Position numbers and translations under genes: made by a program. Shown one piece after another: positions 4,078-13,473 of a DNA stretch of 64,000 nucleotides. Location of the stretch: assembly GCF_012849375.1 (NCBI RefSeq), contig NZ_CP051684.1:124001-188000 (forward strand), written 5' to 3'. This DNA comes from Duganella dendranthematis (GTDB lineage Bacteria; Pseudomonadota; Gammaproteobacteria; Burkholderiales; Burkholderiaceae_D). Every line of letters begins with the position of its first letter. Positions within the stretch are counted from its first letter, which is position 1. Below the pieces are notes generated by a model, which did not search any database, was not told the DNA's origin, and saw only the letters and a list, made by a program, of their open reading frames with translations.

Positions 4078-5214
4078 ATGAACGAGTTTCAACAATACTA
4101 TGGACAACAAATCGCACCACAGCAATACGGCGAGCTCGCCCCGCAAGGTTTCTTCGGTGGTCTGATCGGCGCCCCGCTGGGCGGCCTGATTGGTCGCGGC
4201 ATCGGCGGCCTGTTCGGCAATGCCAACCTGGGCCGCCAGATCGGCTCGGCCGCCGGCGGCATTGGCGGCGGGCTGCTGCCGTTCGGCGTCGATCCGGTTG
4301 CTGCCGCCTATGCGCAGCAAGCACAACAACAGCAACTGCTGCAACAAGCCCAGCTGGCGCAACAAGGCCTGGCCCCGCAAGGCTGGTTCGGCAACATCAT
4401 CAAGAGCGTGGCGCAGCCGCTGGGCGGCGCGATTGGCGGCGCGTTTGGTAACGCCGGCCTGGGCAACACCATCGGCGGCATCGCCGGCCAGCTGGGCGGC
4501 ATGCTGCCGTTTGCCGCCGATCCGGTGACGCAAGCCTATGCGCAGCAAGCACAACTACAACAGCTGCAACAACAAGGCCTGGCGCCGCAAGGCTGGTTCG
4601 GCAACATCATCAAGAGCGTCGGCCGTCCACTGGGCGGCATGATCGGCGGCGCACTGGGCAATGCGGGCCTGGGCAATACTATCGGCGGCATTGCCGGCCA
4701 TCTGGGCGGCATGCTTCCCTTCGCCGCCGATCCGGTCGCGCAGGCCTACGCGCAGCAGGAAGCACTGATGCAGCAGCAAGGCATCGCCCCGCAAGGCTGG
4801 CTGGGCGACCTGATGCGCAAATACCGTCCATATACCGGCATCATCAGCCCCACCGTGCCGGTGCCGCCGCAATCGACCATGCTGCCGTTCAGCGCCGACC
4901 CCGTCACCCAGGCCTACGCGCAGGGCCAGCAGGACGTACTGGCGCAACAAGGCCTGGCGCCGCAAGGCTGGTTCGGCAACATCATCAAGAGCGTGGCGCA
5001 GCCGCTGGGCGGCGCGATCGGCGGCGCCTTCGGTAACGCCGGCCTGGGCAACACCATCGGCGGCATCGCCGGCCAACTGGGCGGCATGCTGCCGTTCGGC
5101 GTCGATCCGGTGACGGCCGCCTACGCACAACAAGCACAACAGGCACAGCTGGCGCAACTGGCGGCGGCACAGCAAGGCAACAGCGCGCTGTACGGCCAGC
5201 AAACCCTGCATTGA
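4078..5214 (+). CDS. Glycine-zipper repeat protein, possible polyprotein
   Basis: I recognise no named family. The 378-residue protein has no signal peptide or obvious membrane anchor. It consists of about five repeat units starting near residues 20, 97, 167, 235 and 292. Each begins (G)LAPQGWFG(N), runs through a basic IIKSV patch and a chain of overlapping GxxxG motifs (PLGGAIGGAFGNAGLG), then ends LPF..DPV..AYAQ followed by a Gln/Ala linker. Unit 4 has lost the glycine zipper. Units 2 and 5 differ at only about six bases over roughly 145, mostly synonymous, which points to recent duplication or conversion. An AAGGAG ribosome site precedes the start. It is followed by a prodomain-like protein and a subtilase on the same strand, so it may be their substrate; that is inference. 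Confidence 0.85.
   Translation: MNEFQQYYGQQIAPQQYGELAPQGFFGGLIGAPLGGLIGRGIGGLFGNANLGRQIGSAAGGIGGGLLPFGVDPVAAAYAQQAQQQQLLQQAQLAQQGLAPQGWFGNIIKSVAQPLGGAIGGAFGNAGLGNTIGGIAGQLGGMLPFAADPVTQAYAQQAQLQQLQQQGLAPQGWFGNIIKSVGRPLGGMIGGALGNAGLGNTIGGIAGHLGGMLPFAADPVAQAYAQQEALMQQQGIAPQGWLGDLMRKYRPYTGIISPTVPVPPQSTMLPFSADPVTQAYAQGQQDVLAQQGLAPQGWFGNIIKSVAQPLGGAIGGAFGNAGLGNTIGGIAGQLGGMLPFGVDPVTAAYAQQAQQAQLAQLAAAQQGNSALYGQQTLH
4366..5097 (+). repeat. In-gene repeat units 2-5 of the glycine-zipper protein
   Basis: Units begin at 4366, 4576, 4780 and 4951, with spacings of 210, 204 and 171 bases. All keep the reading frame. Units 2 and 5 are almost identical, unit 3 is slightly diverged and unit 4 is degenerate in its middle. 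A more diverged unit 1 begins near 4135. Confidence 0.85.
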
Positions 5215-5250
5215 TCACGGCAGCGCCCGGACGCGGGCGCGCGCCAATTT

Positions 5251-5279
5251 GCCCTCCGGCGGCCCGGCTGCCGGAGGGC
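5251..5279 (+). promoter_or_regulatory. Strong hairpin between cassette genes
   Basis: A perfect 10-bp stem (gccctccggc at 5251-5260 with gccggagggc at 5270-5279) and a 9-base loop lie between the repeat-protein gene and the next gene. There is no T-run after it, so it is not a typical intrinsic terminator. It may stabilise the upstream transcript end or lower read-through, giving unequal expression of the first gene and the later ones. Confidence 0.5.
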
Positions 5280-5303
5280 GCTGTGCTTTAAGGAGAATTC
5301 CTC

Positions 5304-5606
5304 ATGCCCGAAACCTCAAGCGCCACGCAAGCGATGCCGGACAAGGCCCGCTTCCTGGTTCATGCCGCGCGTGGCGCGCCGCTCAACGACTTCCTGGCGG
5401 TGGCGTCCACCGATCCCGAGATCGCCGTGGTCGACGTCATCGGCCCGCGCGACCAGCCGCACACGGCGGTCGTGGAAATCACTCAGGACAAGGCGCGCCT
5501 GCTCGATCAGCACTTCCGCCGCACCGGCACGCCGTCGCACCAATTGACCATAGAACCGGACCGCCCGCTCTCCATGTTCGACGGCGGCGCAGTCGATCCC
5601 TTTTGA
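5304..5606 (+). CDS. Stand-alone protease-prodomain-like protein
   Basis: A 100-residue protein without a signal peptide. Residues about 40-93 match residues about 120-178 of the subtilase encoded next door: both have I-VVD--GPR, then a T-x2-KA-x2-L strand-helix pattern, an L-IE/VE-D core and an MFD/LMD ending. The same arrangement resembles the small I9-type inhibitor/prodomain fold of subtilisin propeptides. The likely role is a free inhibitor, chaperone or immunity partner of the neighbouring protease; this is inferred from the shared domain. An AAGGAG ribosome site precedes the start, and the subtilase starts 10 bases after the stop. Confidence 0.8.
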   Translation: MPETSSATQAMPDKARFLVHAARGAPLNDFLAVASTDPEIAVVDVIGPRDQPHTAVVEITQDKARLLDQHFRRTGTPSHQLTIEPDRPLSMFDGGAVDPF

Positions 5607-5616
5607 AAGGAACATC

Positions 5617-7659
5617 ATGCCTAAAAATCCCAATGGCGGCAGCACACCGCCGTCAGACCTTCCCTCCACCAGCGATGGCGACAGCGCCTCGCCGGTGGAA
5701 AGCAGCAATCCCGGCAGCCGCCGCTCTGGCTTCAGCGCCAGCAGCAGCAGCAGCAGCAGCGACACGCGCGCTGCCGACACGGTGGCCATTGGCGCCGACG
5801 GCGAGTCTGCGCCGCACAGCAACGGCCACGCCGGCGGCACCGGCCACGCCATCGGCGCGCGCAAAAAACAATTCGTCATCGCCCCGCGCCACCAGACCGA
5901 AGCCTTGCAGACACTGGGCTTCCAGCCTTTGCAGTTCGACGCGCTGGAACAGGCGCTACGCAACAGCAACGATATCGAGGTGGTCGATAAGGTCGGTCCG
6001 CGCTCGGTGCTGAGCGCGCTATCCGACGGCAGCGGCTCGTCGCAAGGCGTGCTGGTGGCGCGCATGACGGAGCAGAAAGCCGCCGCGCTGCATCAGCAAG
6101 GCCAGGGCCGCCTGCTGGTCGAGCGCGACCAGCATCTGGCGCTGATGGACCCGTCGCTGCGCCTGCCCGCCATGGTCACCGGCGTGACGCCGACCAATGG
6201 CGGCGGACCGGTGCTCAACGCCGTCATCAGCGTGGTCGGCAAGGATGGCACGCCGCAGGCCAACGCCGAAGTGTCGCTGTTCGGCAGCATGCTGCCCGCC
6301 AGCGGCGTGACCGACGCCAACGGCCGCGTGACCTTGTCGCTGTTCGGCGAAACGCCCGACACCGTGCGCGGCCTGTACGTCAAGCCCAAGGCCGACTATT
6401 GGAGCTTCTACCAAAGCGATCCCGACATCAGCAGCGACGAGCCGAACGTGGTGGCGCTGCGTGCGCTGTCCGATTGGCCGGCGCTGTCTGGCTTCCCGCG
6501 CCAGCGCTGCTACGGCTGGGGCCAGAAGGCCATGCGGCTCGATCAACTGCCCGGCAACTATCGCGGCCAGGGCGTGAAGATCGCCATCATTGATTCCGGC
6601 GCCGCCACCTCGCACGACAACCTGCACGGCATCCACGCCGGCTTCGATGTGCTCAACAAGCAAAGCAACCCGGACGGCTGGGACCAGGACACGCTGGGCC
6701 ACGGCACCCACTGCGCCGGCGTGATCGCGGCGGCCGACATCGCGTCCGGCATTCGCGGCTTCGCGCCGGATGCGGAAGTGCACGCCTGCAAACTGTTCCC
6801 CGGCGGCCAGGTCAGCCAGCTGATCGACGCACTGGAATACTGCATCGACAAGCAGATCGACGTGGTCAACCTGTCACTGGGCGGCGCCGACGTCTCGGAG
6901 GCGCTGGAGCAGCAGATCATCCGCGCCAAGCGCGCCGGCGTGGCGTGCATTGTCGCGGCCGGCAATTCGGGCGGACCGGTGCAGTACCCGGCCTCGTCGC
7001 CCAACGTGCTGGCGGTGTCGGCCATCGGCAAGCTGGACGAATTCCCGGCCGACAGCTACCACGCGCAGACGCTGGACAGCAATGTCGACGCCAACGGCTA
7101 CTTTACGGCCAAGTTCAGCTGCTTCGGACCGCAGGTGGGCGTGTGTGCGCCGGGCGTAGCGATTACCTCGTGCGTGCCGCCGAATAACTTCGCCGCCTGG
7201 GACGGCACCTCGATGGCCACGCCGCACGTGACCGGACTGGCGGCGCTGACGGTGGCACATCATCCCGACTTCCAGACCGCGCAGTATCAGGCGCGCGGAC
7301 CGGAGCGGGTCGAGCGGCTGTTCCAGATCATCCGCGCCAGCGCGCACCGCGTCAGCTTGGGCGACCAGAGCCGCACCGGGTTCGGTTTGCCGGATGTGTT
7401 GTTGGCGGTGGGATTGCAAACGCCGGCCGCGCGGCCGGCGATGCAGCCGCAGCAGATGATGGGACCGATGGTTGCGCCACTCGTCGCACCGATGATTGCA
7501 CCACTGATGGCGGCGCCGCTGATGGCGCAGGCGCCGGTGTACGATCCGTTCGCGTTCGACGTCGCGCGTACGCACTTGGGCAACTTCGGCATGCAGTGGC
7601 CGCAGCTGCACGTGGGCCAGTTCCCGATCCCGAAACCGTACAACCCGATCATGTGGTGA
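5617..7659 (+). CDS. Subtilisin-like serine protease (S8) with unusual termini
   Basis: 680 residues. Order: disordered Ser/Gly-rich region (1-82, including a seven-Ser run), a prodomain-like region (about 84-180) shared with the preceding 100-residue protein, an Ig/carboxypeptidase-regulatory-like segment (about 186-255), the S8 catalytic domain (about 300-600), and a Met/Pro/Ala-rich tail with repeated xAPLMA motifs ending in MW. The catalytic triad is D326 (IIDSG), H362 (GHGTHCAG) and S532 (DGTSMATPH), with oxyanion N450 (AAGNSGG), so the enzyme should be active. There is no signal peptide, so it is cytoplasmic or leaves by an unidentified route. The repeat protein upstream is a plausible substrate. 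A bidirectional terminator follows. Confidence 0.93.
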   Translation: MPKNPNGGSTPPSDLPSTSDGDSASPVESSNPGSRRSGFSASSSSSSSDTRAADTVAIGADGESAPHSNGHAGGTGHAIGARKKQFVIAPRHQTEALQTLGFQPLQFDALEQALRNSNDIEVVDKVGPRSVLSALSDGSGSSQGVLVARMTEQKAAALHQQGQGRLLVERDQHLALMDPSLRLPAMVTGVTPTNGGGPVLNAVISVVGKDGTPQANAEVSLFGSMLPASGVTDANGRVTLSLFGETPDTVRGLYVKPKADYWSFYQSDPDISSDEPNVVALRALSDWPALSGFPRQRCYGWGQKAMRLDQLPGNYRGQGVKIAIIDSGAATSHDNLHGIHAGFDVLNKQSNPDGWDQDTLGHGTHCAGVIAAADIASGIRGFAPDAEVHACKLFPGGQVSQLIDALEYCIDKQIDVVNLSLGGADVSEALEQQIIRAKRAGVACIVAAGNSGGPVQYPASSPNVLAVSAIGKLDEFPADSYHAQTLDSNVDANGYFTAKFSCFGPQVGVCAPGVAITSCVPPNNFAAWDGTSMATPHVTGLAALTVAHHPDFQTAQYQARGPERVERLFQIIRASAHRVSLGDQSRTGFGLPDVLLAVGLQTPAARPAMQPQQMMGPMVAPLVAPMIAPLMAAPLMAQAPVYDPFAFDVARTHLGNFGMQWPQLHVGQFPIPKPYNPIMW

Positions 7660-7704: not shown

Positions 7705-7779
7705 TGGCGTCCCCAGGGGATTCGAACCCCCGTACTCACCGTGAAAGGGTGATGTCCTAGGCCTCTAGACGATGGGGAC
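7705..7779 (-). tRNA. tRNA-Glu (TTC), variant copy with one base missing
   Basis: Cloverleaf with anticodon TTC in the loop CCCTTTCACGG, and CCA encoded at 7705-7707. Compared with the four other tRNA-Glu genes in the window it lacks one C on the 3' side of the T-stem: four Gs at 7716-7719 on the plus strand instead of five. It can fold with a G-U pair closing the T-stem and a 6-bp acceptor stem, or with a 4-bp T-stem, so it may be non-functional. It is the last gene before the terminator at 7669-7699. Confidence 0.85.
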
Positions 7780-7816
7780 AGAAACTGTCCGTACTGGCCG
7801 CTTGGAAATGTCGCGT

Positions 7817-7892
7817 TGGCGTCCCCAGGGGGATTCGAACCCCCGTACTCACCGTGAAAGGGTGATGTCCTAGGCCTCTAGACGATGGGGAC
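7817..7892 (-). tRNA. tRNA-Glu (TTC)
   Basis: A 76-base cloverleaf with encoded CCA, identical to the copies at 12828, 13058 and 13287. It has its own sigma-70-like promoter at 7908-7936 and is followed by the variant copy at 7705-7779. It borders the insert that separates it from the rest of the tRNA array. Confidence 0.97.
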
Positions 7893-9362: not shown

Positions 9363-10199
9363 CTACTTTTCAACAGCCTCCACCTTTGGTTCGTTTGCCT
9401 CAGGAATACACAAAGTTACCTCATACACAGTGGCTAATTCGGCCATAGATCGGGACAAAACCCGAAGGAAACTAATGTACTCCCGCAGTGATTCCACGGA
9501 CGGCCAATCGAATTCGCCGGAAGGATGAGCGATTCGATTTCGCAAATCCATAAGATCATTGAGTTTGCGCTTTGCATTGGCTTCAACCTTCGCTGAGTCA
9601 GCCTCTTGAAAAAAGGCTTTTAGGGCAACTTGCGCTGAAACCTGTGCCCATATATTTGAGGCACCAATTCTTCCAAACAAGTCTGCCAACACATCCGCAC
9701 GCATGTTCGACTCTGTCACGGAAAGACATTCATGATTTATTCGCTCGACTGCTGCATTAACAGCAAGATTGGAGGCAAGTGTAGTTACAAAAGTCCGGAC
9801 GCCATTTTCGGCATGTCCGTACTTGCGCGGCTCAGAGATAACTTTCGCGGTGAATAGAGGAAGGTTCTCGCGCATTTTCTTAGGAAGACGAGCAAAACGT
9901 CCGGCTTTTGCTACTAGTCGCTGACAAAGATCTTCAAAAAGTACGCGAGTCATAGACTCAAAACGGCCACAGGCATAAAGGATTAAAGTTCCGCTGGCTA
10001 AAGGTAAGTTTCCATGAATCCGTTTGGCACCTTCATGAACCATTTTGGCCTCTATCCCAAATGGTTCAGTTAATAATGGATCATCTTCGCTAGGTAAATA
10101 GGCTGTAAACTTTCGAATTACTTCGATGAAATCTAGCTGCGCGGATACTTTATCTAAGTCACCTTCGAAGTCTTTAATGATTGGATCCATAGCGTTCAT
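9363..10199 (-). CDS. HEPN-domain protein (MAE_28990/MAE_18760-like), putative RNase
   Basis: 278 residues, all-helical, no signal peptide. The C-terminal part carries the HEPN signature R-x4-H: R220 to H225 in LRNRIAHPSGEFDW, the motif that forms the RNase site in HEPN toxins and effectors. The N-terminal half matches my recollection of the MAE_28990/MAE_18760 HEPN type, which is often encoded beside DUF262 proteins. Its start overlaps the stop of the DUF262 gene by four bases (ATGA), so the two are translationally coupled. Clearly AT-richer than the flanking core genes, which suggests horizontal acquisition. Probable role: effector of a two-gene defence or toxin-like module (inference). Confidence 0.8.
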   Translation of the reverse strand: MNAMDPIIKDFEGDLDKVSAQLDFIEVIRKFTAYLPSEDDPLLTEPFGIEAKMVHEGAKRIHGNLPLASGTLILYACGRFESMTRVLFEDLCQRLVAKAGRFARLPKKMRENLPLFTAKVISEPRKYGHAENGVRTFVTTLASNLAVNAAVERINHECLSVTESNMRADVLADLFGRIGASNIWAQVSAQVALKAFFQEADSAKVEANAKRKLNDLMDLRNRIAHPSGEFDWPSVESLREYISFLRVLSRSMAELATVYEVTLCIPEANEPKVEAVEK

Positions 10200-11383
10200 C
10201 CGACCAAGATAGTTGTAGCGAGTGCGACGCGCTCTTTAATGGCCTCCAAAGTGTTACCTCGCCCGACGAGTATTTCATATTTCTCTGGCTCTGCGAGTGC
10301 GGCGGCTAGCCGTTCCTTAATCGCAACAGAATCGATATCGAGATCTATCATTGGGTTAGCGTTGGCAGCAACCAAAATCGCATCATACAGCGGACGGCTG
10401 GGCCGGCCATCTGGGAGTAGATGGAAGTGAGAACTAAGAGCACGCGTTATCCGCAGAAGTGTGCCAAGGAAGTCTGACTTTAACAGATCAACTTGGCTCA
10501 CCGTTAAGGTGCTGTACCGTTCCATTGTCCGATCAAAAATCTGTCGTAGTGAACCCTTTGTCTTTCCTGCGACAGCATCCCTAATGCCAAAGAAACGCAG
10601 AACTAATTCACAGTCCATCATTGATCGATATAAGGTATTTCGCAGTAACTCTGTCGCTGGTTGCTCGTCTTCTTTCGGAGTACGCTTGGGAATTTTCCAC
10701 AGGTCGCAGAAAAGCTCTTCTCGCGACAACTCATGAAGCGCGGTATTAAATATTCCGGGGTATAGTGCATTCCGTAGCTCTTGGGGATTCAGTTTAATAC
10801 CACCAGTATTCAATCGTCGAAATAGGACAAGTCGAATATCTACAGAGTCTTCGGATCGTGACGTTTCAGCGAGTAAAACAACTGCATTTAACGTACGTCG
10901 AAGTAATCCGCGTTGGACTGTCCCGGGTAGATCAGTAAAACGTTTGCCTTGAAGCTCTGGCCAGAACTCAAGCCCGGTTAGCGGGTATTTATTGTCCAAA
11001 AATTCCGAAATGGCCTCTAATCGTTGGCGTCCATCCATTATCTCGTACTGGTTGTAATCCTTCTCAAACAGAAATAATGGAGGAACTGGAATATTCATCA
11101 AAAATGATTCAATAAGCAGAGATTTTTTTCGTCTATCCCACCGAGCGCGCCGCTGGTAACCTGGGGCAATATTAATGTACGATTTGTCTTTAATCGATGC
11201 AACAAGTGTATGGAGAGTAAAATCGAGACTAGTTCGAACAATGCGGATTTGTGTATCTGCATATTTTTGAGAAAGCTCTTCGTCGCTAAGAACAGCTTCT
11301 GGCCCGTCAGCCTCCTCAGCCTCAAACCAATCCTCAATATCGTTATCGGAAAGTGAATTAACAGTCAGCTCGCTTTGGGTCAT
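10196..11383 (-). CDS. DUF262 (ParB/GmrS-like) protein
   Basis: 395 residues from the ATG at 11383, which has AAGG upstream; an in-frame ATG at 11443 is less likely. The N-terminal DUF262 domain (about 50-250) contains GYQRRARWDRRKKSLLIES and the DGRQR motif at about 117-121, equivalent to the DGQQR nucleotide-binding/hydrolysis motif of GmrS- and ParB/sulfiredoxin-like proteins. The C-terminal part is helical and lacks a recognisable HNH (DUF1524) domain, so the nuclease function may be supplied by the coupled HEPN protein downstream. AT-rich relative to the core. Likely the sensor or NTPase half of a phage-defence module (inference from related families). Confidence 0.85.
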   Translation of the reverse strand: MTQSELTVNSLSDNDIEDWFEAEEADGPEAVLSDEELSQKYADTQIRIVRTSLDFTLHTLVASIKDKSYINIAPGYQRRARWDRRKKSLLIESFLMNIPVPPLFLFEKDYNQYEIMDGRQRLEAISEFLDNKYPLTGLEFWPELQGKRFTDLPGTVQRGLLRRTLNAVVLLAETSRSEDSVDIRLVLFRRLNTGGIKLNPQELRNALYPGIFNTALHELSREELFCDLWKIPKRTPKEDEQPATELLRNTLYRSMMDCELVLRFFGIRDAVAGKTKGSLRQIFDRTMERYSTLTVSQVDLLKSDFLGTLLRITRALSSHFHLLPDGRPSRPLYDAILVAANANPMIDLDIDSVAIKERLAAALAEPEKYEILVGRGNTLEAIKERVALATTILVG

Positions 11384-11621
11384 TCTATACCTTGGATTTT
11401 TAAATGTAAGTGGCGCCAAGTGGCGTAAATTAGGACAATTCAAATTTAAAATGCGTTATTTTATTGATGACACGCTAAAGCATTGAGTAAATGGGCAAAG
11501 GAGTACCACCAGGGCGTCTACGGTCCAGCCACTTGTACTTGGTCGCTCAACCATATAGTCAAACTTAAGGTATCTGGCTGCTCCTGGCCGATTTCGGTTG
11601 CTGCCTTGCAGCCTTCCTGGT

Positions 11622-12827: not shown

Positions 12828-12903
12828 TGGCGTCCCCAGGGGGATTCGAACCCCCGTACTCACCGTGAAAGGGTGATGTCCTAGGCCTCTAGACGATGGG
12901 GAC
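12828..12903 (-). tRNA. tRNA-Glu (TTC)
   Basis: 76-base cloverleaf with encoded CCA, anticodon TTC. It is the last gene of the alternating array and is followed by the terminator at 12794-12825. Together with the identical copy at 7817-7892 it brackets the insert. Confidence 0.97.
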
Positions 12904-12937
12904 CTTGGAACTACGGCTTACTATCATCTCCGTGCGT

Positions 12938-13013
<76 letters not shown>

Positions 13014-13057
13014 TGGCACAGAAACTATTGACTACTACCGACCAGCCTTGGCGAAGC

Positions 13058-13133
13058 TGGCGTCCCCAGGGGGATTCGAACCCCCGTACTCACCGTGAAA
13101 GGGTGATGTCCTAGGCCTCTAGACGATGGGGAC
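13058..13133 (-). tRNA. tRNA-Glu (TTC)
   Basis: Identical to the copies at 12828 and 13287. The spacer on its 3' side contains the short inverted repeat CCAGC...GCTGG that is also found beside the next copy. Confidence 0.97.
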
Positions 13134-13169
13134 CTCGGAACTACGGCACTACGATCATCCTCTGTGCGG

Positions 13170-13245
<76 letters not shown>

Positions 13246-13286
13246 TCTGGCACAGATTATTTACTACTCACCAGCCTTGGCGAAGC

Positions 13287-13362
13287 TGGCGTCCCCAGGG
13301 GGATTCGAACCCCCGTACTCACCGTGAAAGGGTGATGTCCTAGGCCTCTAGACGATGGGGAC
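13287..13362 (-). tRNA. tRNA-Glu (TTC)
   Basis: Third tRNA-Glu of the alternating array, identical to its neighbours, encoded CCA. Confidence 0.97.
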
Positions 13363-13397
13363 CTTGGCACTACTACGGTACTACAACCTCTGCAAAC

Positions 13398-13473
<76 letters not shown>

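What the first reader, a model, noticed from the sequence alone, without database searches (positions are those of the whole stretch)
4078..7659. Three-gene cassette: glycine-zipper polyprotein, free prodomain-like protein, and subtilase
Seen: the 378-residue protein carries about five units, each with a WFG-NIIKSV basic start and a run of overlapping GxxxG motifs, then LPF..DPV and a Gln-rich linker. Two units are almost identical at DNA level. A 100-residue protein and a subtilase with an intact triad follow on the same strand, and none of the three has a signal peptide. Known: GxxxG-rich, basic, 40-45-residue peptides occur in two-peptide bacteriocins, and subtilases process precursor peptides. 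Inference: the first gene may encode a multi-peptide precursor cut by the protease at the repeated linkers. Alternatives are a self-assembling structural protein, or a storage or scaffold role.
Basis: partly seen in the sequence, partly recalled or inferred. Interest (0 to 1): 0.82.

Follow-up and report, generated by a model that had tools for sequence, protein, structure and literature searches.

The report
Cargo-swapping polyprotein with dedicated subtilase cassette
A bacterium carries a three-gene unit whose first protein looks like a string of peptides separated by cut sites, followed by a likely inhibitor and the matching protease; relatives keep the cut sites but swap the peptides, which points to an undescribed bacterial peptide-release system.

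Summary
The three genes are real (4078-5214, 5304-5606, 5617-7659, + strand), under purifying selection, and inherited as a unit. In 18 of 36 genus genomes all three occur together. Of 62 named loci found by one repeat motif, 59 reach past the repeat gene, and all 59 have the subtilase behind it. Of 40 loci fetched by the subtilase alone, 34 have all three by HMM; three are cut by contig ends, one has a decayed repeat protein, two have a PQG-type protein with other contents.
The small protein is homologous to the subtilase's own N-terminal domain and shows the published propeptide spacing (Glu, +2 Asp, +5 P4, +8 P1): P4 Leu in 53 of 53, P1 Phe in 49 of 53. The repeat units end in the same kind of sequence (hydrophobic-Leu-Pro-Phe); in the window protein no other Phe has it.
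New here: unit contents are exchanged between lineages (glycine zipper; cationic FWSVLKKIG; LPGLLMGLLS type) while the PQG start, the Phe boundary and often a C-terminal His stay. Best reading: a multi-peptide precursor cut by its partner protease.

The parts
4078..5214 (+). 378-aa PQG/LPF repeat polyprotein (class A cargo: glycine zipper)
   Evidence: best library hits are weak: Pfam Gly-zipper_OmpA E 0.33, NCBIfam none, PHROGs E 0.013, PADLOC E 0.092
4138..4284 (+). unit 1, N-terminal zipper variant, aa 21-69, ends LLPF
4372..4512 (+). unit 2, zipper, aa 99-145, ends MLPF
4582..4722 (+). unit 3, zipper, aa 169-215, ends MLPF
4786..4890 (+). unit 4, no zipper, Pro-rich GIISP type, keeps APQGW and MLPF, followed by SADPVTQAYAQ
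4957..5097 (+). unit 5, zipper, aa 294-340, protein identical to unit 2
5203..5211 (+). C-terminal Thr-Leu-His, common in classes A and C, only in some class B proteins
5251..5279 (+). inverted repeat GCCCTCCGGC/GCCGGAGGGC between polyprotein and small gene; possible attenuator or 3'-end stabiliser
   Evidence: z -3.6 for the whole gap here; 36 of 62 loci below -2
5304..5606 (+). 100-aa free propeptide-like protein, presumed inhibitor
5550..5579 (+). tail IEPDRPLSMF: Glu/Asp caps and P4-P1 residues L-S-M-F by register
5617..7659 (+). 680-aa subtilase (S8)
5860..6147 (+). attached propeptide-like domain of the subtilase, tail VERDQHLALM
6565..7293 (+). catalytic domain (Peptidase_S8, aa 317-559)
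7405..7656 (+). low-complexity C-terminal tail ending in Trp

Best explanation
The cassette is a self-contained peptide-release unit. Gene 1 makes an inert polyprotein: repeated blocks of PQG + hydrophobic or amphipathic cargo + a cut site (hydrophobic-x-x-Phe) + a short linker with Pro, usually closed by a C-terminal His. Gene 3 makes a subtilisin-like protease that cuts after the boundary Phe and frees peptides (69, 76, 70, 56, 69 and 38 residues here if every LPF is cut). Gene 2 is a free copy of the protease's propeptide domain whose tail fills the S4-S1 pockets and holds the protease back until needed. The freed zipper or amphipathic peptides then act on membranes or assemble. Shown: constant linkage, homology of gene 2 to the protease N-domain, tail register, boundary motif, exchange of cargo, purifying selection. 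Inferred: cleavage, inhibition, trigger, export and activity.
For: Linkage from both sides: 18 of 36 genus genomes have all three genes, none of 24 genomes outside the family; 59 of 59 loci that reach past the repeat gene (of 62) have the subtilase behind it; in samples of 398 Pseudomonadota genomes four have the unit and the same four the subtilase; of 40 subtilase-first loci 34 have all three by HMM and three more have an upstream PQG protein. Gene 2: its profile hits 73 of 82 subtilase ORFs (two of them through the fused small domain itself; genomes held twice count twice) and no ORF outside subtilases and small proteins among 14,601; HHalign against the N-domain 98.4%, E 7e-15; fused in frame to the subtilase in L096 and L101. 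Register E/+2/+5/+8 as published: E 53/53, D 49 + N 4, P4 L 53/53, P1 F 49/53. Units: 410 of 426 end xxPF, with a hydrophobic P4 in all 410; in the window protein 5 of 14 Phe fit, all five at boundaries; in 120 class A proteins 497 of 510 fitting sites are followed by Pro within 2-6 residues as boundaries are. Cargo swap with kept frame.
Against: No cleavage data. Gene 2 does not match Inhibitor_I9 significantly (HHalign E 0.03; no such hit for 53 members in Pfam, or by profile in the PDB). Of four small proteins without Phe at P1, three could be compared (L102, L109, L136) and their unit ends are unchanged, so no covariation. The protease's own N-domain does not keep Phe at its P1 position (M, L, H, Q, C, A or G). 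The small proteins of the class C loci were not found by the gene-2 profile in L285 and have altered tails (IDPNAPLRF, one residue short, in L219; VDPNAGLQQL in L285). L269, L286 and the paralogue L048 have no separate small protein that I could find. Most class B proteins do not end in His. The boundary rule was framed after seeing the data.
Confidence: 0.6

Rival explanations
1. Self-assembling structural protein: the zipper blocks form a fibre, gel or surface layer; the protease trims or dissolves it and the inhibitor guards its timing. The products are building blocks, not effectors.
For: Glycine zippers occur in aggregating proteins (Caulobacter CdzC, PMC5380434 passages); 1-11 HMM-scored units per repeat ORF; near-identical tandem units; zipper-like segments and DP motifs also in protease tails.
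Against: Classes B and C mostly lack the zipper yet keep the boundary frame; a lattice would be expected to keep its repeat rather than its boundaries.
Confidence: 0.23
2. Intracellular death switch: the precursor waits in the cytoplasm; a signal (for example phage) removes the inhibitor, the protease frees membrane-active peptides and the cell dies. Logic like bacterial gasdermins.
For: No signal peptide seen by eye; presumed inhibitor encoded just before the protease; no peptide exporter or immunity family among the 27 flanking proteins scanned; amphipathic class A and B cargo.
Against: Beside EarP in 33 of 62 loci, so a conserved chromosomal site in part of the family rather than shifting defence islands; PADLOC gives only a generic subtilase model and a weak IetS match.
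Confidence: 0.12
3. Protease-centred unit: the polyprotein is a multivalent decoy or scaffold that binds or anchors the protease and is not a product precursor.
For: Unit ends resemble the inhibitor tail, as a decoy's would.
Against: Cargo between the sites is conserved within classes and exchanged between them, which a decoy does not need.
Confidence: 0.05

Closest known systems
Cyanobactin precursors (PatE) with S8 proteases PatA/PatG
   Same: precursor peptide with recognition sequences cut by subtilisin-family proteases (PMC10885120, passages); several cores per precursor (recalled)
   Different: no modifying or cyclising enzyme seen; longer unmodified cargo; protease comes with a free propeptide-like protein
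Caulobacter Cdz glycine-zipper bacteriocin
   Same: glycine-zipper proteins (PMC5380434, passages)
   Different: [quoted passage not shown] none of these seen beside this cassette in what was scanned
Plasmodium SUB1-ProM; fungal POIA1
   Same: stand-alone subtilase propeptide-like inhibitor; SUB1-ProM has Glu/Asn caps and a P4 Val tail (PMC6993865, abstract and section 18; POIA1 named in passages of PMC10580911)
   Different: no polyprotein substrate encoded with them is mentioned in what I saw
Fungal Kex2-processed repeat proteins
   Same: repeat precursor processed into peptides (PMC7329392, search listing with start of abstract only)
   Different: eukaryotic, secretory pathway, dibasic sites (recalled)
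Bacterial gasdermin operons
   Same: membrane-active protein freed by a protease (search listings only; details recalled)
   Different: different protein; no tandem cargo (recalled)

Membership tests
Peptidase S8 (subtilases) | catalytic domain and D/H/S triad | tested here: met
   Pfam E 2e-42; motifs for D, H, N and S in 62 of 63 family members, the other has AATGN for AAGN
Inhibitor I9 / propeptide family | profile match to PF05922 | tested here: not met
   no I9 match among 53 members; HHalign E 0.03 against 22 I9 domains
Inhibitor I9 / propeptide family | E-x-D caps and P4-P1 tail at +5 and +8 | tested here: met
   weaker in class C
Inhibitor I9 / propeptide family | propeptide fold; inhibits the cognate subtilase | not testable with these tools
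Class IIb / Cdz bacteriocins | dedicated exporter and immunity gene in the cluster | tested here: not met
   none among 27 flanking proteins scanned from the window and eight loci; a LysE-type translocator (L098), an ABC/FecCD pair (L103) and an L-lactate permease (L110) were seen; other loci and the rest of the genome not scanned
Class IIb / Cdz bacteriocins | GxxxG peptides that kill other bacteria | not testable with these tools
   GxxxG zipper in class A cargo; activity untested
Cyanobactin-like RiPPs | cyanobactin-type protease and modifying/cyclising enzyme beside the precursor | tested here: not met
   PatA/PatG model 31.5 bits against cut-off 421.05; no such enzyme among the flanking proteins scanned
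Known anti-phage systems (PADLOC) | specific system model match | tested here: not met
   generic 'subtilase' E 1.5e-23 and IetS E 5e-9 for gene 3; E 0.092 at best for gene 1; none for gene 2

The most novel reading that the evidence does not exclude
An undescribed bacterial system in which a dormant tandem polyprotein carries exchangeable membrane-active peptides between fixed protease sites, armed by a partner subtilase and held by a free copy of its propeptide: a programmable peptide magazine used for killing rivals or for altruistic suicide.
Probability: 0.35. Interest if true: 0.92.

Novelty: new variant of a known kind. Interest (0 to 1): 0.8.

Why it matters
If right, bacteria have an analogue of Kex2-type repeat precursors: one protein, many peptides, one dedicated protease and its inhibitor, with no modifying enzyme seen. 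Because the cut-site frame stays while the cargo changes, mining genomes with the protease would expose families of membrane-active peptides that searches by peptide similarity miss. It also gives a clean test of how a subtilase without a signal peptide is controlled by a free propeptide.

Tried and rejected
Considered and rejected: chance neighbours; non-coding or decaying ORF (dN/dS); phage or plasmid gene: no plasmid match to the repeat protein, 34 viral stretches with the motif but none encoding a relative, 60 phage records with a subtilase match, all under 60% identity, none covering 80% of the query, the 20 listed lying at about residues 245-600; cleavage at AYAQ (no likeness to the inhibitor tail). 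Led nowhere: PDB search with the unit (none) and with the small protein (five hits at E 0.5-0.7, a nuclear export factor); Pfam on 53 small proteins; unit HMM on the protease ORFs (no hit), although their tails often hold a hydrophobic-DP motif (48 of 63 against 7.7 in shuffles, which ignore relatedness); the distant G015 subtilase (38%) has no PQG...PF ORF in its 12-kb stretch. Literature: no held paper has both 'glycine zipper' and 'subtilase'; some searches listed analogues or unrelated papers; nothing I saw describes this cassette, but the library lacks most subscription papers.
Full report
1. What is there. The window holds three genes on the + strand: a 378-aa repeat protein (4078-5214), a 100-aa protein (5304-5606) and a 680-aa subtilase (5617-7659). 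Upstream on the other strand lie EarP, EF-P and an amidase; downstream come two tRNA-Glu genes and an MgtC-family gene. Pfam sees the subtilase domain (E 2e-42) and only a sub-threshold glycine-zipper match in the repeat protein; NCBIfam, PHROGs and PADLOC give no specific family for genes 1 and 2. All three genes evolve under purifying selection (dN/dS 0.065-0.267 against five relatives).

2. Anatomy of the repeat protein. Five units run from PQG to LPF. Four contain a glycine zipper; one does not but keeps both ends (APQGW ... MLPF-SADPVTQAYAQ). Units 2 and 5 are identical in protein and differ at 6 of 141 bases. Among 306 length-47 units of relatives the PQG start and LPF end are 99-100%, but that search required PQ and PF, so these letters are there by construction. 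A looser count that fixed only the start found xxPF in 410 of 426 units; of the 16 misses 12 were printed, ten ending FLPL and two MLAF.

3. The genes travel together. In 60 genomes (own, 35 of the genus, 24 of the order) the repeat protein is in 18, all in the genus; the small protein is in the same 18; the subtilase at E <= 1e-60 is in the same 18, with a distant homologue (38%) in G015 and a second copy (42%) in G001. A scan of named genomes for APQG[FW]FGN gave 62 loci: Duganella, Rugamonas, Massilia, Noviherbaspirillum, Lacisediminimonas, Herbaspirillum, Pseudoduganella, Oxalobacteraceae and Burkholderiales MAGs, four Bradyrhizobium and an alphaproteobacterial MAG among them. Three end inside the repeat gene (L142, L150, L154). 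In the other 59 the subtilase follows on the same strand; in 57 the small protein is a separate ORF, in two (L096, L101) it is fused in frame to the subtilase. In L105, L111 and L130 an ORF of the cassette is interrupted. Many of these species are also in the genus survey, so the counts are not independent.

4. The reverse test. A subtilase profile (A8) at E <= 1e-100 found 4 of 398 Pseudomonadota genomes, the same four that the unit profile had found; 3 of 61 in the family of G391 and 1 of 385 in its class, G391 itself counted; and 69 of 294 in the own family, 11 of 44 genera. The first look scored only a few candidates per genome in the large samples, so these are lower bounds. Of the 71 matched places I fetched 40: 34 have small protein and unit protein by HMM; L251, L264 and L268 are cut by contig ends; L269 has a decayed PQG protein ending QTLH and no small protein that I could find; L285 and L286 have upstream PQG proteins with other contents, L285 with a small ORF that the profile did not find, L286 without room for one. 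Some of these are the same loci as in paragraph 3.

5. Site and history. EarP lies within the fetched stretch in 33 of the 62 loci. Genus members without the cassette show what the site looks like empty: in G007, G018 and G035 (no cassette) and in G474 (not in that survey) a tRNA-Glu starts 80-164 bases from EarP. I looked at 14 such stretches: six had the repeat gene, these four were empty, G032 had tRNA-Glu 833 bases off, G011 no tRNA, and G466 and G457 were read on the wrong side. So at this site the unit is present or absent as a whole. Elsewhere the flanks differ: 20 flanking proteins from eight loci are, among others, a LysE translocator, an FecCD/ABC pair with a TonB receptor, an L-lactate permease, an Na/H exchanger, glycogen phosphorylase and flagellin; no peptide exporter or immunity family.

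6. The small protein. A profile of 53 free small proteins hits 73 of 82 subtilase ORFs (best stretch E up to 0.024; two through the fused small domain itself) and no ORF outside subtilases and small proteins among 14,601; HHalign against the N-domain gives 98.4%, E 7e-15. It does not match Pfam Inhibitor_I9 significantly. But the tail has the published register: propeptide Glu and Asp two apart cap catalytic-domain helices (BPN' Glu69/Asp71; PfSUB1 Glu209/Asp211), with P4 at Val214 and the last residue Asp217, that is +5 and +8 (PMC6993865 section 18). Here: Glu84, Asp86, Leu89, Phe92; across 53 proteins Glu 53, Asp 49 and Asn 4, Leu 53, Phe 49. Five proteins end at or just before that position. 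Propeptide tails bind the cleft in a product-like manner, and Suc-AAPF-pNA, with Pro-Phe at P2-P1, is the assay substrate used there (PMC10580911 passages).

7. Likeness of inhibitor and unit ends. The inhibitor tail is L-S-[L/M/P]-F; zipper units end [M/L/F/I/V/Y]-L-P-F. In the window protein 5 of 14 Phe have a hydrophobic P4 and a P2 in LIVMPAF; all five are unit ends, while most other Phe have Gly, Gln or Pro at P4. In 120 class A proteins 497 of 510 such sites are followed by Pro within 2-6 residues, in class B 27 of 30, in class C 67 of 72. The rule was framed after seeing the data. Against it: in three of the four small proteins without Phe at P1 (L102, L109, L136; L111 could not be compared) the units are unchanged.

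8. Cargo exchange. In L159 and L160 (G391, G418) the first unit is a zipper but the rest are seven and six copies of DMELQSFWSVLKKIGQGVQTGVNIGHQLGVF-SAGQP, with a small protein and a subtilase of the same families. Eight related proteins were found, two named (a Gemmatimonadota MAG, Methylobacterium frigidaeris); the seven checked have ends of the type [LIV]G[VIL][FL]-xA or LP[FL]-xAG, with exceptions such as FADQPG. In L219 (G521) and L285 (G894) the units are PQG ... LPGLL[MI]GLLS ... [LI]S[ML]F-xxxP; one search lists 26 such proteins, the query's own record included, among them Paracraurococcus and Rhizobium leguminosarum. A class C end such as LSMF is identical to class A inhibitor tails. 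The last residue is His in 23 of 26 class C proteins and in the large majority of 120 class A proteins (83 TLH, 12 TVH, 4 TIH, and a few others); in class B it is His in L159, L160, P0124 and P0125 but not in P0121-P0123, P0126 and P0128. Class A and B segments are more amphipathic than shuffles (9, 1 and 6 of 2000 reach the value); the two class C segments are not (239 and 82 of 2000).

9. Regulation. A hairpin lies between genes 1 and 2 in the window; over 62 loci the mean folding z of that gap is -2.5 and 36 are below -2 (mononucleotide shuffles). This fits more precursor than protease but was not tested.

10. Verdict. The cassette is real, and its parts fit a precursor-protease-inhibitor unit. 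What the peptides do, and where, is open. I rank a peptide-release system first, a self-assembling material second, a suicide switch third.

Noticed in passing
window 9366-11443 (-): HEPN RiboL-PSP gene beside a GmrSD_N (DUF262) gene, in a stretch between two groups of tRNA genes (7706-7892 and 12828-13473): a small defence-like islet.
   Followed up: no
L048 (G001:C66): Second, diverged cassette in one genus member: repeat protein with HLIPF ends and a 42%-identical subtilase, no separate small protein.
   Followed up: partly
L218 (G486:C5): Diverged subtilase whose GTSMA stretch reads RTSAAAA, behind an upstream PQG protein without clear tandem units.
   Followed up: no
L122 10912-11634, L159 8148-8969: Regulators next to alphaproteobacterial cassettes: a LuxR-family response regulator in L122 and a BTAD/SARP-type activator in L159; an ORF after the subtilase in L218 also reads like a LuxR-type regulator (by eye). 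They may point to the trigger.
   Followed up: no
subtilase C-tails, window 7405-7656: Low-complexity tail ends in Trp in 54 of 63 family members and often holds a hydrophobic-DP motif like the repeat linker; meaning unknown.
   Followed up: partly
L220 (G015:C20) 5892-7568: Distant subtilase (38%) with a propeptide-like domain tail IEEDQPLTLL, in a neighbourhood of large synthase-type ORFs.
   Followed up: no
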